Source of the DNA: a virus
Direction: 5' to 3' (one strand)
DNA: 64,000 bases
IMG/VR virus record: IMGVR_UViG_3300036939_000021
Coordinates: 1-64,000 of that record
Shown: piece by piece, positions 7,409 to 42,067 of the stretch
Layout of the letters: each line of letters starts with the position of its first letter
How positions within the stretch are numbered: position 1 is the first letter of the stretch
Program-made: the position numbers and the translations under genes
The notes under the pieces: generated by a model
What the model was told of the DNA's origin: nothing
What the model saw: only the letters and a program-made list of their open reading frames with translations
Databases searched by the model: none

Positions 7409-7909
7409 ATGACAAACTTTAATCGATCTCTGCCAATTATTCAAGGAATATCAGAAAGAATTTACAAACAAACTCCAACACCCATTAATGCTGAAGATTG
7501 CCAGCGTCTAATTAGAGAATTCCGTAATGTTAGTACCGATATTGCTTATCAATTGCAACTTAGAGATAAAGAAGCTGAAGGATATTATCAATGGAAAAAG
7601 ACAGCGCTACATAAACAGCGTATTAAACTAGCGCAAATTACAATTTTACAAGCTTGGTATGCCGAATATTGTAATGAGAATAAAACAAAAAATCAGCAAT
7701 TACAAAAAGAATTAAATAGTTTTGGTATTCAACTTATTACAGATTTAGATGAGGATAATGTAAGCGCTGGTCAAATTAAACGAGAGCTTAAGTGGTTACG
7801 TAGTTGTGTAGGTGCTTTGTATGATGTTGTTTTGAATGATGAATTAGATGATGAAGATGTACGCGAAAAACTAGAAAAATTGGCTGATGCTTTGAATTGG
7901 AGAGAATAA
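7409..7909 (+). CDS. hypothetical protein, 166 aa
   Basis: Mostly helical and charged; begins MTNFNRSLPIIQGISERIYK and ends in an acidic segment LDDEDVREKLEKLADALNW. No recognised domain. Unlike its neighbours it has no TTGACA promoter: only 33 bases separate it from the terminator at 7334, so it probably depends on read-through or on a promoter I cannot see. The stop codon lies 27 bases before the TnpB start. Confidence 0.65.
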   Translation: MTNFNRSLPIIQGISERIYKQTPTPINAEDCQRLIREFRNVSTDIAYQLQLRDKEAEGYYQWKKTALHKQRIKLAQITILQAWYAEYCNENKTKNQQLQKELNSFGIQLITDLDEDNVSAGQIKRELKWLRSCVGALYDVVLNDELDDEDVREKLEKLADALNWRE

Positions 7910-7935
7910 GTGAAACGAAAAGGAGGCAAAAAACA

Positions 7936-9141
7936 ATGCTGGTTCTCGAATATAAAATCAAAGGCAAGCCACAGCAATACAAAGCTATTGATGAAGCTAT
8001 CCGAACAGTGCAGTTCATTCGAAATAAAGCCATTCGCTATTGGATGGATGCACCCAAAGACGCCAAAATCAATCGGTTTACCTTGAATAAATATTCGACC
8101 GATCTACGCAACGAGTTCTCCTTTGTCAAAGATCTTAACTCAATGGCGGTGCAAGCTGCTGCCGAACGTGGGTGGCTTGCAATTTCTCGGTTTTACGACA
8201 ATTGTAAGTCCAAAAAATCAGGTAAAAAAGGTTTTCCTCGCTTCCAGAAAGACAACCGCTCAGTAGAGTACAAAACAAGCGGATGGTCGCTTCATCCTAC
8301 AAAGCGACGGATTATCATCACCGATAAAAAGGGGATTGGTGAACTCAAGCTTTTGGGTAAGTGGGATATTCATCAATATCCTGTAAAGTCCATTAAGCGA
8401 GTTCGTTTAGTCCGTCGTGCCGATGGATATTACTGTCAGTTTGCTGTTGATGTTGACTGCATTAATATTCAGCCAAAAACAGGTCAAGAAATTGGATTAG
8501 ACGTAGGACTAGAATCGTTTTACACAGATTCAAACGGACATCAAGAGCCTAATCCAAAGTTCTTGAAAAAAGCTGAATCTAATATAAAACAGACTCAACG
8601 TCGCATCTACAAAAAAGTTAAAGGTTCAACAAGACGCCGTAAGGCAAGAGCTAGATATTCCAAGAAACACTTGAGAGTAAATAGGCAACGTACCGAACAC
8701 GCTAAGAGACTAGCGCGTCACGTTTGCAAGTCTAATGACTTAGTAGCCTATGAAGACTTAAGGGTAGCGAATTTGCTTAAAAACCACTGTTTAGCTAAGT
8801 CAATTTCTGATGCTAGCTGGTATCAGTTCAGGCAGTGGATAGAGTATTTTGCTACTAAGTTTGGAAGATTAGCTGTTGCCGTTCCACCCCAGTACACCTC
8901 TCAGGAGTGCAGTCAGTGTAAGGCGATAGTCAAAAAATCCCTTAGCACTAGAACTCACGTTTGCTCGTGTGGATTAATTCTGCAAAGAGACTGGAATGCG
9001 GCAATCAATATTTTGCGTAAGGCAAAATCTAGGGGAGGGCATCCCCAAAGTAACGCTAACGGAGTTGGAGCCTCTACGCTACTTGGGGAAACCCTGGTAG
9101 AGCAAGTTCTGACGATGAAGTTAGAATCCCACCCGCTTTAA
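7936..9141 (+). CDS. tnpB: TnpB, RNA-guided nuclease of the IS200/IS605-IS1341 group, 401 aa
   Basis: Full-length TnpB. Start ATG 7936 is preceded by a perfect AGGAGG at 7921-7926. RuvC-type catalytic residues are visible: Asp in GLDVGLESF, Glu in AYEDLRVANL, Asp in LQRDWNAAINI. The zinc ribbon is intact (CSQC ... CSCG). TnpB proteins are guided by an RNA from the 3' end of their gene and cut DNA next to a short motif. No TnpA is next to it. The gene is clearly richer in G and C than the flanking phage genes, which points to recent transfer, and its N-terminus (MLVLEYKIKGK) is of the cyanobacterial type as I recall it. Confidence 0.9.
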   Translation: MLVLEYKIKGKPQQYKAIDEAIRTVQFIRNKAIRYWMDAPKDAKINRFTLNKYSTDLRNEFSFVKDLNSMAVQAAAERGWLAISRFYDNCKSKKSGKKGFPRFQKDNRSVEYKTSGWSLHPTKRRIIITDKKGIGELKLLGKWDIHQYPVKSIKRVRLVRRADGYYCQFAVDVDCINIQPKTGQEIGLDVGLESFYTDSNGHQEPNPKFLKKAESNIKQTQRRIYKKVKGSTRRRKARARYSKKHLRVNRQRTEHAKRLARHVCKSNDLVAYEDLRVANLLKNHCLAKSISDASWYQFRQWIEYFATKFGRLAVAVPPQYTSQECSQCKAIVKKSLSTRTHVCSCGLILQRDWNAAINILRKAKSRGGHPQSNANGVGASTLLGETLVEQVLTMKLESHPL

Positions 9142-34155: not shown

Positions 34156-35364
34156 TCAATTAAGTTTATAAGGAGTAATCCTTACTGGCTGAACTACAAC
34201 AGCCTGTATTCCTTCTACAAACGCATTAGGAAATACTTTTCTGATTATATTTAAACTACCGTTGATATCAGCATTTATAAATTTGTTGTCAGCAGTTCTA
34301 AACAGCCCTCTTTTGACTCGCTTTCCCAAATACAACTCATGTTTACAAATAGGTTCATTATCCAAAGCACTACATTTTGAAGTGTAGCTTTCCTCTGTAA
34401 TGAAAACTTCAATGCCAACTAACTCACATTTGTACTGAAGCATTTCAATAAACTTGGCATGAGGAATTTGTACAAAGTTTTGGTTATTCCGCTTACCTAA
34501 ATTTATTTCTTGCTTCCAACCATCGTTTTTACCTATCACAAGGTTGCCAACTCGATGCTTAAGTAAGTAATTAACAATGAATCGACTTGCATTGTGTAGG
34601 TAATTATCTACTTTGCAGTTACGCTTATGAGTCAGTTTTTGAATCTGATTTGATGTGTAAATTTTACCCTTTAGTTTAGATTGCAGGCTAGCACGTTTCT
34701 TATTGAAATATACGTTGATTGACTTAAGAGGTCTTCCGTTAACCAGTACAGGTTTAAAGCCTTTAAGATTTGATGTTAAAGCCCCTAATGTATTCAGCCC
34801 GATATCTAAACCAGCAACAGTATTAGAGTCTAACTCGTGTTGTTCAGTTTCTTTCTCATAGACTACCTCAATAACATAATATTTGATTTTTGGAACTATT
34901 CTAACTTGACAAACATTATCAACTTTTGTAGGAATAAATATGTCTGTTTTAGATGGGTTAATTAAACCTTTTTTCAAGGCTTTCTTGCTAATTGCTTGAT
35001 TGGTGTAAGTGACTAAGTTTCTACCTTCCGTTTTATGTTTATAGCCAGGTAACTTAGGTCTGCCCTTAAACTTAGCAGGATTCTTGTAATATTCTTTATT
35101 TATCACAGCGAATGACTTCCAAGCTTCATCAAGCTTCATTAACACTTGCTGAGATACCTTGGCAGGCAAAGCAAGATAGTCAGGTGTATTCTGACACTGC
35201 TTTTGAACAGTGTTGTAACTTAGCCTAGTTCTGTCATTTATAAACGGTTGCCTAATTAGATAATTTGCATAGTTAAACAAATTTTTAGACAAAAAGCAGA
35301 ATTTGTCACATTCTTTATAAAATTTATGACTTTGTTTGATGATATGTCGTTCGACTAGCTGCAT
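34156..35364 (-). CDS. tnpB: TnpB of a variant type with altered nuclease motifs, 402 aa
   Basis: Second TnpB, only distantly related to that at 7936. First catalytic Asp in VAGLDIGLNTLG and final Asp in FINADINGSLNI are present. The usual second motif with Glu is replaced by LVIGKNDGWKQEINLG, and the zinc-ribbon cysteines are missing (ESYTSKCSALDNEPICKH). I recall a TnpB branch with exactly these changes. ATG 35364 is chosen because the family N-terminus (MQLVERHIIKQS) begins there and the -10 box lies upstream of it. An RHH gene is divergent. Confidence 0.85.
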   Translation of the reverse strand: MQLVERHIIKQSHKFYKECDKFCFLSKNLFNYANYLIRQPFINDRTRLSYNTVQKQCQNTPDYLALPAKVSQQVLMKLDEAWKSFAVINKEYYKNPAKFKGRPKLPGYKHKTEGRNLVTYTNQAISKKALKKGLINPSKTDIFIPTKVDNVCQVRIVPKIKYYVIEVVYEKETEQHELDSNTVAGLDIGLNTLGALTSNLKGFKPVLVNGRPLKSINVYFNKKRASLQSKLKGKIYTSNQIQKLTHKRNCKVDNYLHNASRFIVNYLLKHRVGNLVIGKNDGWKQEINLGKRNNQNFVQIPHAKFIEMLQYKCELVGIEVFITEESYTSKCSALDNEPICKHELYLGKRVKRGLFRTADNKFINADINGSLNIIRKVFPNAFVEGIQAVVVQPVRITPYKLN

Positions 35365-35388
35365 ATCTGTTATAGTTGTACTAACACT

Positions 35389-35397
35389 AGTATAGCA
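35389..35397 (-). promoter_or_regulatory. TGC-extended -10 promoter of the second tnpB
   Basis: Minus-strand TGCTATACT 24 bases before the ATG. A CTAAC/GTTAG inverted pair (35381-35385 and 35401-35405) frames it and could bind the adjacent RHH protein. Confidence 0.5.
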
Positions 35398-35410
35398 AGA
35401 GTTAGTAGAA

Positions 35411-35557
35411 ATGACACGTTTATCAGAGAAAATTTTGACGATTCGCATACCAGATATAGAGATGCAACTGTTAACTGAGTATTGCAAGCAAACAAAAAGG
35501 ACAAAGACCGATGTGGTAAGGGAACTTATTCGATCCTTGTCACAAAAAGGTACTTGA
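35411..35557 (+). CDS. RHH-type regulator next to tnpB, 48 aa
   Basis: MTRLSEKILTIRIPDIEMQL, then TKRTKTDVVRELIRSL: a strand followed by two helices, the ribbon-helix-helix layout. Small RHH genes placed divergently from tnpB are common in cyanobacterial elements as I recall. It probably belongs to the element and controls tnpB expression from the 46-bp gap between the two genes. Confidence 0.6.
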   Translation: MTRLSEKILTIRIPDIEMQLLTEYCKQTKRTKTDVVRELIRSLSQKGT

Positions 35558-37685: not shown

Positions 37686-38135
37686 CCTAAACAAAATATT
37701 CTTTTTCTCTGCCATGTAGAAGAAAGCTTTAGATCATTTTTTCCTGATAAACTCTACGTCACACGATTAATAAAAGCTTGTCAATCTGTCAAATACGATC
37801 AAGTAATTGCACTAGTCAGCAATATTATGGATTATGATCCAATTCCTGAAATAGCTGATTTAGTAACAGATAGAATAGATTTTAGTTGGGGATATGAGCC
37901 AGAACAATTTGAAGATGAACCGGAAGAAGAAAAATTTATTATAGACGCTAGCTATAAATCCGCTCATGATTGGACTTGGATACCTCCAGAACTTAGAGAT
38001 AAATCATGGGCAACTAATAAAAATATCTATATCGGTGGTGGATGTAACGGAGAATGTCTAGCAGATTTTGAAGTAGTACTAGAAACACTAGATATAGATT
38101 ACAAACGAATAGAAGGATATATCTACGGAGTCTAA
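37683..38135 (+). CDS. conserved phage hypothetical protein, 150 aa
   Basis: Starts with a hydrophobic strand (MPKQNILFLCHVEESF), has an acidic middle (EPEQFEDEPEEEKF) and ends with GGGCNGECLADFEVVLETLD and a YIYG strand. This ending (GG...ECL) resembles phage proteins that I know only as hypothetical. Alpha/beta fold likely. Confidence 0.6.
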   Translation: MPKQNILFLCHVEESFRSFFPDKLYVTRLIKACQSVKYDQVIALVSNIMDYDPIPEIADLVTDRIDFSWGYEPEQFEDEPEEEKFIIDASYKSAHDWTWIPPELRDKSWATNKNIYIGGGCNGECLADFEVVLETLDIDYKRIEGYIYGV

Positions 38136-38157
38136 ACACTCTCGATTATTCCAGGGA

Positions 38158-38167
38158 TGCATCTACT
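38158..38167 (+). promoter_or_regulatory. intercistronic GCATCTACT element 4
   Basis: TGCATCTACT after CCAGGGA and a reverse GGAATAAT (38145-38152), 28 bases before the next ATG. Confidence 0.5.
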
Positions 38168-38194
38168 CTCTTACCCCATTCATCTTCTAAAATC

Positions 38195-38623
38195 ATGCAA
38201 ACATTTCTTCCTTATCCTGACTTTGTTAAATCTGCTGAATGTCTTGATAGACAAAGATTAGGTAAACAACGAGTCGAGTGTTTACAACTTCTTAATGCTA
38301 TTGCGGGAACTTCTAAAGGTTGGATTAATCATCCTTGTACCAAAATGTGGAAAGATTACCCAGAAGCATTAGTGCATTATTCCGTTGTAATTTGTTTTGA
38401 GTGGCGATCTAGAGGTTATAAAGATTCTTGTTTAGAAAAAATAGAAAATTTAGGACAGCAACAAAACTGGAAAATAGAACAAGATATTTTAAAATATCCT
38501 TCTTGGATAGGTAGAGAAGACGTACACGCTTCACATCGATCGAATTTACTTAGAAAACTTCCTGATCATTATCAGCAGTTTGGATGGAGTGAACCGGATA
38601 ATCTACCTTATATCTGGGTTTAA
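38195..38623 (+). CDS. pyrimidine-dimer glycosylase-like (MSMEG_6728-type) protein, 142 aa
   Basis: MQTFLPYPDFVKSAECLDRQ, RLGKQRVECLQLLNAI, GWINHPCTKMWKDYPEALVH and EWRSRGYKDSC match the MSMEG_6728/Pyr_excise-type family, related to phage DNA glycosylases that excise UV dimers. The catalytic assignment is by family only. It could protect phage DNA from light damage, which would suit a cyanophage. Confidence 0.75.
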   Translation: MQTFLPYPDFVKSAECLDRQRLGKQRVECLQLLNAIAGTSKGWINHPCTKMWKDYPEALVHYSVVICFEWRSRGYKDSCLEKIENLGQQQNWKIEQDILKYPSWIGREDVHASHRSNLLRKLPDHYQQFGWSEPDNLPYIWV

Positions 38624-38647
38624 TATCTAAAACATTCTCGATGATAC

Positions 38648-38676
38648 TCTCCTCTCCTTAGAGGAGATTTTTTTTA
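38648..38676 (+). terminator. intrinsic terminator
   Basis: TCTCCTC (38648-38654) pairs with GAGGAGA (38661-38667), then T. Confidence 0.85.
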
Positions 38677-38706
38677 TAATAATATTGTTGAATTCTCAAA
38701 AAATTT

Positions 38707-38850
38707 ATGATGATTCTGAGTAAACAAGATTCAAAAGTTTTTGTAGAAGTTTTGCTTAATCCTCCGGACGTATCAGAAAAACTACAAAAATCTTCTGAAA
38801 ACTATAAACAGAAAATTCTAAATAAAAGTAGTCCATCTAAAATCGCCTAG
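38707..38850 (+). CDS. DUF1778-antitoxin-tail-like small protein, 47 aa
   Basis: LSKQDSKVFVEVLLNPPDVS and EKLQKSSENYKQK match the C-terminal part of DUF1778 (TacA-type) antitoxins, which is the segment that binds the acetyltransferase toxin. The N-terminal RHH DNA-binding domain of those antitoxins (about 50 residues) is absent and no toxin gene is adjacent. Either a gene remnant or a free toxin-binding peptide. Confidence 0.5.
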   Translation: MMILSKQDSKVFVEVLLNPPDVSEKLQKSSENYKQKILNKSSPSKIA

Positions 38851-38913
38851 AAGACCTCTCTAATTTTTAGGCTATCTAGCCCTAGCCGCAAGCTTTTCGA
38901 GTCTTATAGACTC

Positions 38914-38938
38914 ACCTAGACCATAATAAAAAGCCCTC
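38914..38938 (+). repeat. 25-bp direct repeat (partner 39250-39274)
   Basis: ACCTAGACCATAATAAAAAG and five further bases are identical in both copies, flanking the 39043 cassette. At 39250 the repeat forms the left arm of a terminator. Confidence 0.85.
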
Positions 38939-38952
38939 CAGGATTCTCGAAG

Positions 38953-39045
38953 GCTAAAATATTTTTAAAATATATCTTGACATCTTAGATTTTTATTATT
39001 AAAATAGAGGAGTCGGGAAAGAAAAGCTAAGGAAATCGAAAAATG
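38953..39045 (+). repeat. promoter-plus-leader cassette, copy 2
   Basis: Near-identical to 37595-37685, up to and including the ATG of the downstream gene. Confidence 0.85.
38977..39005 (+). promoter_or_regulatory. early promoter 23
   Basis: TTGACA at 38977-38982, 17-bp spacer, TAAAAT at 39000-39005; serves 39043. Confidence 0.85.
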
Positions 39046-39243
39046 CTAAAACCTAACCAAGTCATTCAATACAAAGGTCTACAAATCGCTATCTTTGCTA
39101 CAAAATCAATGAAATATGTAGCAACAGTAGGACAATACGACCACTACATGACAAATGATGTAGCGGCTCTAGGCTTAGAGAACGCTGAAACTGCTACAAA
39201 GAGCGCTAAAGCTTATATTGATGATTTGAAAAAGACAGCATAG
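39043..39243 (+). CDS. hypothetical protein, 66 aa
   Basis: MLKPNQVIQYKGLQIAIFAT start, Ala/Lys-rich end (ATKSAKAYIDDLKKTA). Small alpha/beta protein of unknown family in a cassette bounded by 25-bp direct repeats. Confidence 0.65.
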   Translation: MLKPNQVIQYKGLQIAIFATKSMKYVATVGQYDHYMTNDVAALGLENAETATKSAKAYIDDLKKTA

Positions 39244-39263
39244 AAGCTAACCTAGACCATAAT

Positions 39264-39300
39264 AAAAAGCCCTCTAGAATCCTAGAGGGCTTTTTATTTT
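39264..39300. terminator. bidirectional intrinsic terminator
   Basis: 14-bp stem (39264-39277 with 39282-39295), A-rich left and T-rich right, between convergent genes. Confidence 0.85.
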
Positions 39301-39315
39301 ACTTAAATTTTGATT

Positions 39316-40317
39316 TTAAGCGGCTAATGTTTCCTTAGCGAATAGATATGATTCCAGTTGTTCTTTCTTTTCTGGTACATACTCAAGCCATACCTTACCA
39401 CATTCTTGTTTCATCTCTATAGAAAACTGAAAGTCTATAAAATTCTCGCTAGGTGCTGGATGTTGTTTTTTAGAATAATCCTGATAAGGATTGGTTAGTA
39501 CACGATAGAGTTTTTCTGGAAGTGTCTTTTGAAATTGTTGATAAGACTTTTCCCAATTTGCAATTGCTGTTTGAATGTCTTCCTCATAGTCTTCATCTTC
39601 TAATTGCTCTTGTGTGACTTGAGTGAAGCCATAGGAAAAGAGATCAATTTGTTCGCCAGTAAATAAAGTATCGATGAGTTTTAGAAATAATCCTTGTCGC
39701 TTTTGCTCTAATTGGTGTTCCTCGTATTCTTCTTGAGTCATATTTTCAACGGATTTAAATCCATTTTGACTGAGAAAGGGTGAGTACTCATCGCCTCTGT
39801 AATTGATGATTTCTAAGAAACGCATTTTATGGAGAGGCATAGGATACGCCCAAGGTTCAATAGTTTTGATTTGATTGTCTTTAGCTGCAAGAGCTTTTTG
39901 TAGTTCTACTACCGTTTGTCGTAATTCCTCAAGTTCACCTCCAACGTTCTGATACTCAGTAACAACAGCTTGCGATGATACACCCTCAAGCATAACTACT
40001 TTATCTTTACCGAGTTTCTTAATGACATCGATAACCCATAAACGTAATTCAATATTTGACCAGTAACCAAAATCAATCACCATTTCTTCCGTTCCCCAAG
40101 TCCCTCCATATTTGCCTTTTTGGACATCTAAAACTTTACCTTTAGTTTTTTCTAAAGCTCTTGTTAACGCTAAAGTATTCTCATTTCGTAAATAATTTCC
40201 TATTAAAGTATTGGTACTTTTTGCCATATCTGTTAAACATCCCCAAATAGAACCATCATCTCTTGTTTCAAAACGGATATTTTTACCTTGAAATTCTTGT
40301 GTAATAATATTTGACAC
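39316..40317 (-). CDS. KilA-N-type regulator, 333 aa
   Basis: N-terminal KilA-N-type domain (IRFETRDDGSIWGCLTDMAK, NYLRNENTLAL, GGTWGTEEMVIDFGYWSNIE) shared with the protein at 42138. Residues about 115-155 may be a short coiled coil (LEELRQTVVELQKALAAKDN). The C-terminal 130 residues are shared with the fragment at the window start. KilA-N proteins act as phage antirepressors or DNA-binding regulators. An RHH gene lies 4 bases upstream in the same operon. Confidence 0.75.
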   Translation of the reverse strand: MSNIITQEFQGKNIRFETRDDGSIWGCLTDMAKSTNTLIGNYLRNENTLALTRALEKTKGKVLDVQKGKYGGTWGTEEMVIDFGYWSNIELRLWVIDVIKKLGKDKVVMLEGVSSQAVVTEYQNVGGELEELRQTVVELQKALAAKDNQIKTIEPWAYPMPLHKMRFLEIINYRGDEYSPFLSQNGFKSVENMTQEEYEEHQLEQKRQGLFLKLIDTLFTGEQIDLFSYGFTQVTQEQLEDEDYEEDIQTAIANWEKSYQQFQKTLPEKLYRVLTNPYQDYSKKQHPAPSENFIDFQFSIEMKQECGKVWLEYVPEKKEQLESYLFAKETLAA

Positions 40318-40321
40318 TATT

Positions 40322-40510
40322 TTAGTTTCCTTGTTGTTTTTGTGAAGTTTGAGTGAGATTGTTACGAAATTGCTCTAAAGCAACCTTAATAACAGCATTA
40401 GCGGAAATCTGATGATCAATTGAGTAAGACTTTAACCATTCTTTAAGTTCAGCCGTAAGTCTTACCGACATAGTTGGAACCAAATGTCCGGATGAATCTT
40501 TTTTGTTCAT
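40322..40510 (-). CDS. RHH-type regulator, 62 aa
   Basis: MSVRLTAELKEWLKSYSIDH then ISANAVIKVALEQFRNNL: ribbon-helix-helix layout. The upstream DNA holds GGTG/CACC inverted half-sites around 40530-40550, a candidate operator. Forms an operon with the KilA-N gene and mirrors the RHH/KilA-N pair at 41918/42138. Confidence 0.7.
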   Translation of the reverse strand: MNKKDSSGHLVPTMSVRLTAELKEWLKSYSIDHQISANAVIKVALEQFRNNLTQTSQKQQGN

Positions 40511-41917: not shown

Positions 41918-42067
41918 CTAGGTGATGCCTCTTGCTAGCCGTTCTAGAGTGTCGGATAGACTAGTAGCGTTTATTTCTGTTTGTTTTTCTTCAAGCCACT
42001 TGAGTACTGTTGGAGTAACGGTAAGGGTGAGTTTTTGCTTAGATTCTTTATATACATTTTTTCTCAT
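41918..42067 (-). CDS. RHH-type regulator, 49 aa
   Basis: KQKLTLTVTPTVLKWLEEKQ then NATSLSDTLERLARGI: ribbon-helix-helix pattern. It is divergent from the KilA-N gene at 42138 with a 70-bp intergenic region that contains the promoter and repeated AATACCCGTTT/AAAATACG-like sequence, a likely operator. Terminates at 41866-41894. Confidence 0.65.
   Translation of the reverse strand: MRKNVYKESKQKLTLTVTPTVLKWLEEKQTEINATSLSDTLERLARGIT

What the first reader, a model, noticed from the sequence alone, without database searches (positions are those of the whole stretch)
38707..38850. Toxin-binding tail of a DUF1778 antitoxin encoded without its DNA-binding domain
The 47-residue product resembles only the C-terminal segment of TacA-type antitoxins (LSKQDSKVFVEVLLNPPDVS). 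In TacA/TacT-like systems that segment neutralises the toxin. A phage gene carrying just this part could act as an anti-toxin peptide, comparable in idea to T4 Dmd, keeping a host toxin inactive during infection. It may also be a decayed remnant.
Basis: partly seen in the sequence, partly recalled or inferred. Interest (0 to 1): 0.65.

Follow-up and report, generated by a model that had tools for sequence, protein, structure and literature searches.

The report
Phage gene: detached TacA antitoxin tail
A virus that probably infects cyanobacteria carries a 47-residue reading frame that is only the toxin-gripping tail of a bacterial antitoxin, and the same kind of detached tail recurs in several unrelated phages, so it may be a minimal antidote to host growth-arrest toxins, although this particular copy could also be a leftover.

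Summary
ORF 38707-38850 (+, 47 aa) is homologous to the C-terminal, toxin-binding segment of TacA/DUF1778 antitoxins: Pfam TacA1 positions 47-79/80 (E=0.0012; 19.2 bits, just under the 21-bit cut-off), and about 50-60% identical to tails of full-length cyanobacterial TacA proteins, most beside a GNAT toxin. No ribbon-helix-helix (RHH) remnant lies upstream and no GNAT toxin was found in the 105.9-kb record. Tails without TacA's RHH and without a toxin recur: a 48-aa gene in two Burkholderia jumbo phages, a 41-aa ORF overlapping a phage recombination gene, a 69-148-aa cyanophage family (S-SRM01, S-CREM1, B23, 37 IMG/VR contigs), and a chimaera of RHH, TacA tail and VapB-type tail. Tail-only chains share PDB entries with GNAT toxins. 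Most likely it is a minimal anti-toxin peptide. Against this copy being active: it lies between a terminator and the next promoter, lacks the phage's recurrent promoter and a Shine-Dalgarno, has no close phage relatives, and decayed TacA fragments exist in cyanobacterial chromosomes. Functional about 0.53, relic about 0.40. An orphan cyanophage TacA antitoxin was already proposed for S-CREM1; I found no description of the recurrent tail-only form.

The parts
38707..38850 (+). 47-aa ORF, TacA/DUF1778 toxin-binding tail only
   Evidence: Pfam TacA1 47-79/80, E=0.0012; 48-60% identity to tails of full-length cyanobacterial TacA
38692..38706 (+). In-frame codons (ILKKF) before the ATG; the profile match extends weakly into them, so the homologous DNA may begin slightly upstream of the ORF start
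   Evidence: stop-to-stop frame and profile alignment 43-84/86
38648..38677 (+). Terminator-like hairpin with eight T, ending the preceding gene and separating it from the ORF
   Evidence: scan; -11.5 kcal/mol
38195..38623 (+). Upstream gene, pyrimidine dimer DNA glycosylase
   Evidence: Pfam Pyr_excise E=2e-26
38911..38955 (+). Degenerate copy of the terminator found intact at 39261-39298; lies downstream of the ORF
   Evidence: 87% identical repeat; -7.3 against -24.9 kcal/mol
38977..39005 (+). Promoter TTGACA-17-TAAAAT of the next gene (39043-39243); the ORF has no such promoter

Best explanation
The ORF encodes a minimal antitoxin: the TacA toxin-binding tail alone. Inferred mechanism: when made during infection, the peptide folds on a host TacT/AtaT-type GNAT toxin, covers it and stops it acetylating aminoacyl-tRNA, so translation continues for the phage. 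Without the RHH domain it cannot dimerise on or repress a TA operon, so it can only sequester toxin. Shown here: homology to the tail, lack of RHH and toxin, recurrence of this arrangement in unrelated phages. Inferred: expression of this copy, binding to a host toxin, benefit to the phage.
For: Homology specific to the tail. Same arrangement in other phages: BcepSaruman/BcepSauron 48 aa (Pfam E=1e-6; 6 synonymous against 7 non-synonymous differences, dN/dS about 0.3); L258 41-aa ORF overlapping a Sak4-like gene by 4 nt; cyanophage family with several N-terminal parts and median tail dN/dS 0.34, no GNAT toxin near the loci scanned; RHH + TacA tail + VapB-type tail in G553. Tail-only chains of 36 and 46 residues share PDB entries 7ak9, 6gtq and 6gtr with GNAT toxins. 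Bacterial antitoxins without RHH stand beside intact GNAT toxins in L221 and L223. Purely neutral divergence to the observed identity keeps an open frame and this family score in 0.3% of simulations. TacA matches occur in 150 of 245 genomes of the likely host order.
Against: No promoter of the phage's recurrent type, no Shine-Dalgarno, terminator 30 nt upstream. No close phage relatives, so no direct test of selection. Changes at usually conserved positions (A to V, P to V, AA to SS). Score 19.2 bits is under Pfam's cut-off. Host and host toxin are inferred. GNAT antitoxins can be specific: only one non-cognate pairing worked among those tested in Klebsiella (PMC9431474).
Confidence: 0.53

Rival explanations
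1. Relic: the phage once carried a full TacA (or TacAT); a deletion removed the 5' part and the toxin, and the remaining 3' end is open by chance and recent age. The ATG is an internal Met codon of the old gene and the peptide is not made.
For: Intact TacA relatives have Met codons at the same place (HEMMIL, HEIMIL), so an ATG needs no selection. No expression signals; position between two transcription units. Decayed TacA tails occur in cyanobacterial chromosomes (L216, L217, L226, L227, L228).
Against: Open frame with family-typical residues is unlikely under purely neutral divergence (0.3%), though recent truncation is not excluded. No RHH or toxin remnant next to it. Phage tails detached from TacA's RHH are recurrent and apparently conserved elsewhere.
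Confidence: 0.4
2. TA interference rather than antidote: the tail binds host toxin but its main effect is to keep it from the TacA-operator complex, changing transcription of the host TA operon or other targets.
For: In AtaRT the antitoxin tail both neutralises the toxin and positions the RHH domains for repression (review PMC10135005), so a tail without RHH could derepress the operon.
Against: Nothing specific points to it; it also requires toxin binding, which by itself should neutralise.
Confidence: 0.05

Closest known systems
TacA/AtaR/KacA (DUF1778, PF08681) antitoxins of GNAT-toxin TA systems
   Same: C-terminal toxin-binding segment, about 50-60% identical to cyanobacterial members
   Different: No RHH DNA-binding domain, no adjacent toxin, 47 aa instead of about 90-105
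TacA-type orphan antitoxin of cyanophage S-CREM1 (ORF106) and relatives in S-SRM01 and B23
   Same: Phage-encoded TacA tail without RHH and without toxin
   Different: 92 aa with an unrelated N-terminal part and a different tail subgroup (ending APWD); the paper does not discuss the missing RHH in the passages read
BcepSaruman_199 / BcepSauron_198 and the L258 ORF
   Same: Tail alone, 41-48 aa, in phage operons
   Different: Different hosts and sequence subgroup; tightly packed, unlike the window ORF
Functional phage antitoxin mimics (T4 Dmd, ICP1 AdfB, TifA)
   Same: Same proposed role: keeping a host TA toxin inactive (AdfB PMC11481870; TifA PMC10853763)
   Different: Other toxins; here the ORF is a recognisable piece of the bacterial antitoxin and its function is untested

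Membership tests
TacA/DUF1778 antitoxin (PF08681) | C-terminal toxin-binding segment | tested here: met
   Positions 47-79/80, E=0.0012; cyanobacterial profile 31-37 bits
TacA/DUF1778 antitoxin (PF08681) | Score over Pfam's curated cut-off | tested here: not met
   19.2 bits against 21; a fragment of the model
TacA/DUF1778 antitoxin (PF08681) | N-terminal RHH DNA-binding domain | tested here: not met
   Absent from the ORF and not detectable in any frame upstream
TacA/DUF1778 antitoxin (PF08681) | Operon with a GNAT toxin | tested here: not met
   No toxin in the window or the rest of the record
TacA/DUF1778 antitoxin (PF08681) | Neutralises a GNAT toxin | not testable with these tools
   Needs co-expression or binding assay
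Phage-encoded anti-toxin (counter-defence) protein | Encoded by a phage without its toxin | tested here: met
   Virus record without GNAT toxin
Phage-encoded anti-toxin (counter-defence) protein | Expressed during infection and blocks a host toxin | not testable with these tools
   Expression signals weak or absent

The most novel reading that the evidence does not exclude
Toxin-binding tails of type II antitoxins circulate in phages as stand-alone or recombined anti-toxin modules (tail alone, tail on unrelated N-terminal parts, or tails for two toxin families on one RHH protein as in G553), an unrecognised class of small counter-defence proteins against GNAT and possibly VapC toxins; the window ORF is a near-minimal member.
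Probability: 0.45. Interest if true: 0.75.

Novelty: new variant of a known kind. Interest (0 to 1): 0.55.

Why it matters
GNAT-DUF1778 systems are widespread in bacteria, including cyanobacteria, but how phages meet them is little known. If antitoxin tails alone are used as antidotes, many short, unannotated phage ORFs gain a testable function, the tail sequence points to the toxin to be countered, and the role of TacAT systems in phage defence becomes testable with a 40-50-residue peptide.

Tried and rejected
1) Chance similarity: rejected. 2) Frameshifted full-length TacA at the locus: six-frame profile searches of 38000-39400 show no RHH or GNAT remnant. 3) Close relatives of the ORF by pattern scans: none in viral contigs or genome contigs; scans with the glycosylase, terminase and a structural gene gave homologues of at most about 62% identity, and none of the five terminase/structural-gene records searched has the tail. 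4) Direct tblastn of the ORF in INPHARED: no hit even at E=10; a consensus tail was needed to find phage examples, several of them at E above 0.1 there and accepted only after a separate Pfam match. 5) A split antitoxin (tail here plus RHH ORF 41918-42067), suggested by the G553 fusion: speculation only, since the two lie 3 kb apart on opposite strands. 6) Shine-Dalgarno test: weak, as only 42% of longer ORFs pass it against 20% of all ATGs. 7) A diverse tail alignment was too variable to scan with. 9) The best PDB hit of the bare ORF (designed protein DHT03, E=0.035) is taken as chance.

Full report
Observation. The ORF exists as described. Its 47 residues match only positions 47-79 of 80 of Pfam TacA1 (PF08681; E=0.0012, 19.2 bits, cut-off 21), and it is the only such match in its 105,884-base virus record. 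Against cyanobacterial genomes the ORF finds the tails of full-length TacA genes (38 of 386 genomes at E<=0.01, best 6e-9). The best matches run MMILSKQDSKVFVEVLLNPPDVSEKLQKSSENYKQ against MMILTKQDQEVFVTALLNPPEPSAKLRDAAQRYKQ, 60% identity. Most of those genes have an RHH domain and are followed by a GNAT acetyltransferase. A profile of 31 such TacA proteins scores the window ORF at 31-37 bits over positions 43-84 of 86; the RHH part, and a profile of 32 neighbouring toxins, find nothing significant in the window. In plasmids all 18 annotated hits are DUF1778 proteins.

Host and toxins. The host is probably a cyanobacterium: the TnpB at 34156-35385 is 63-66% identical to genes of Microseira wollei and of an Oscillatoriales genome, and the ORF's closest relatives are cyanobacterial. 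This is inference. In the order of Microseira, 150 of 245 genomes carry TacA matches, so suitable toxins are common in likely hosts. The record itself has no GNAT toxin.

Anatomy. The ORF lies in the gap between gene 38195-38623 (pyrimidine dimer DNA glycosylase), closed by a hairpin with eight T at 38648-38677 (-11.5 kcal/mol), and the promoter TTGACATCT...TAAAAT at 38977 serving gene 39043-39243. This promoter type recurs about 20 times in the window, mostly just ahead of reading frames; the ORF has none and no Shine-Dalgarno. A degenerate copy of the strong terminator at 39261-39298 lies downstream of it. These facts count against active expression, the Shine-Dalgarno only weakly.

Is the sequence under constraint? 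Starting from functional cyanobacterial tails and mutating neutrally with the phage's base composition to the observed identity (62.5% over 32 residues), the frame stays open in 42% of runs, and open with an equal or better family score in 0.3%. Divergence without constraint along the whole path is therefore unlikely, but a functional past followed by recent truncation is not excluded. Substitutions at usually conserved positions (A to V, P to V, AA to SS) fit some relaxation. The starting tails only stand in for the true ancestor.

Other detached tails in bacteria. In cyanobacterial chromosomes there are decayed copies (L216, L217, L226, L227, L228); a clean 47-aa tail ORF with GGAGG upstream and no toxin in the 16-kb stretch read (L185/L231, genome G501, which has a TacAT pair on another contig, L244); and antitoxins without RHH, two still beside an intact GNAT toxin (L221, L223) and one with a zinc-ribbon-like N-terminus (L225).

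Other detached tails in viruses. L258 has a 41-aa tail (Pfam E=3e-5) whose end overlaps by 4 nt the start of a Sak4-like ATPase gene behind two helicase genes. L259 has a tail in a 114-aa protein without RHH. BcepSaruman_199 is a 48-aa tail (E=1e-6) overlapping its neighbour, with an 85% identical orthologue in BcepSauron (6 synonymous and 7 non-synonymous differences; dN/dS about 0.3). Dulem virus 52 has a 49-aa ORF (E=7e-4). Shewanella phage SXP01 has a tail at the start of a 255-aa ORF (E=0.0045). In Kyanoviridae the tail ends proteins of S-SRM01, S-CREM1 (annotated 'Tac antitoxin peptide') and B23, and of 37 IMG/VR contigs, on several different N-terminal parts; tails average 60% identity against 37% for the N-terminal parts, the median tail dN/dS is 0.34 (331 related, non-independent pairs), and no GNAT toxin was detected in the 35 contig loci and 4 phage loci scanned. 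By contrast Escherichia phage Cyrano carries an annotated antitoxin-KacT pair, and L257 a full-length TacA with a faint match to a toxin's first 25 residues. These searches are pattern-based, so the counts are not a census.

A chimaera. Virus record G553 (IMGVR_UViG_3300018984_000003) encodes a 128-aa protein made of an RHH-like segment (56% identical to window ORF 41918-42067), a TacA tail (Pfam E=2e-5) and a C-terminal 32 residues up to 89% identical to the ends of cyanobacterial 66-89-aa proteins whose genes overlap PIN-domain (VapC-type) genes. No GNAT toxin was found in that record, and no PIN gene was noticed among the ORFs flanking it. It looks like one protein able to grip two toxin families; the role of its last 32 residues is inferred from their place in VapB-type antitoxins.

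Mechanism. PDB entries 7ak9 and 6gtq/6gtr contain tail-only antitoxin chains of 36 and 46 residues together with GNAT toxins. A review describes the antitoxin's disordered tail as folding onto and neutralising the toxin, with the DNA-binding domain serving repression (PMC10135005). GNAT toxins acetylate aminoacyl-tRNAs (PMC9177977). A tail alone should thus suffice to neutralise but not to regulate. Specificity can be narrow: in Klebsiella only one non-cognate pairing among those tested gave rescue (PMC9431474), so the host toxin must match.

Known and new. An orphan TacA-type antitoxin in a cyanophage, with the suggestion that it counters host toxins, was published for S-CREM1 (PMC9964418). 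Phage antitoxin mimics are known for other toxins (PMC11481870). I found no paper describing tail-only DUF1778 genes in phages, but most subscription literature is not covered. The window ORF is therefore a near-minimal variant of a known kind, with an open question about expression.

Verdict. Observation confirmed; the anti-toxin reading is favoured by comparative evidence (0.53), the relic reading is the serious rival (0.40).

Noticed in passing
window, e.g. 403, 1145, 1504, 5870, 21282, 37618, 38977 (+), 44827 (-): A highly uniform promoter (TTGACATCT...N17...TAnnnT, often followed by a similar leader with CTAAGGAAA) recurs about 20 times in the phage, mostly just ahead of reading frames, including short unannotated ones. 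It could mark the phage's early genes.
   Followed up: partly
L232:2812-3198 (G553, IMGVR_UViG_3300018984_000003): 128-aa phage protein joining an RHH-like segment, a TacA (GNAT) tail and a VapB-type (PIN toxin) tail, with no toxin noticed nearby: a possible two-toxin antidote.
   Followed up: partly
L258:2980-3105 (IMGVR_UViG_3300047678_000064): 41-aa tail-only TacA ORF overlapping by 4 nt a Sak4-like recombination gene in a phage replication region.
   Followed up: partly
L264:2989-3756 (Shewanella phage SXP01): Unannotated 255-aa ORF beginning with a TacA-type tail (Pfam E=0.0045).
   Followed up: no
L221, L223, L225: Cyanobacterial antitoxins with a TacA tail but no RHH: two beside an intact GNAT toxin, one with a zinc-ribbon-like N-terminus.
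   Followed up: partly
window 35411-35557 (+), 40322-40510 (-), 41918-42067 (-): Three short RHH-like ORFs, two near KilA-N genes and one overlapping a TnpB gene; the third resembles the RHH part of the G553 chimaera (56% identity).
   Followed up: partly
window 7897-9141 (+), 34156-35487 (-): Two TnpB-like transposon genes in the phage; the second is 63-66% identical to cyanobacterial and 52-59% to Ktedonobacter copies.
   Followed up: partly
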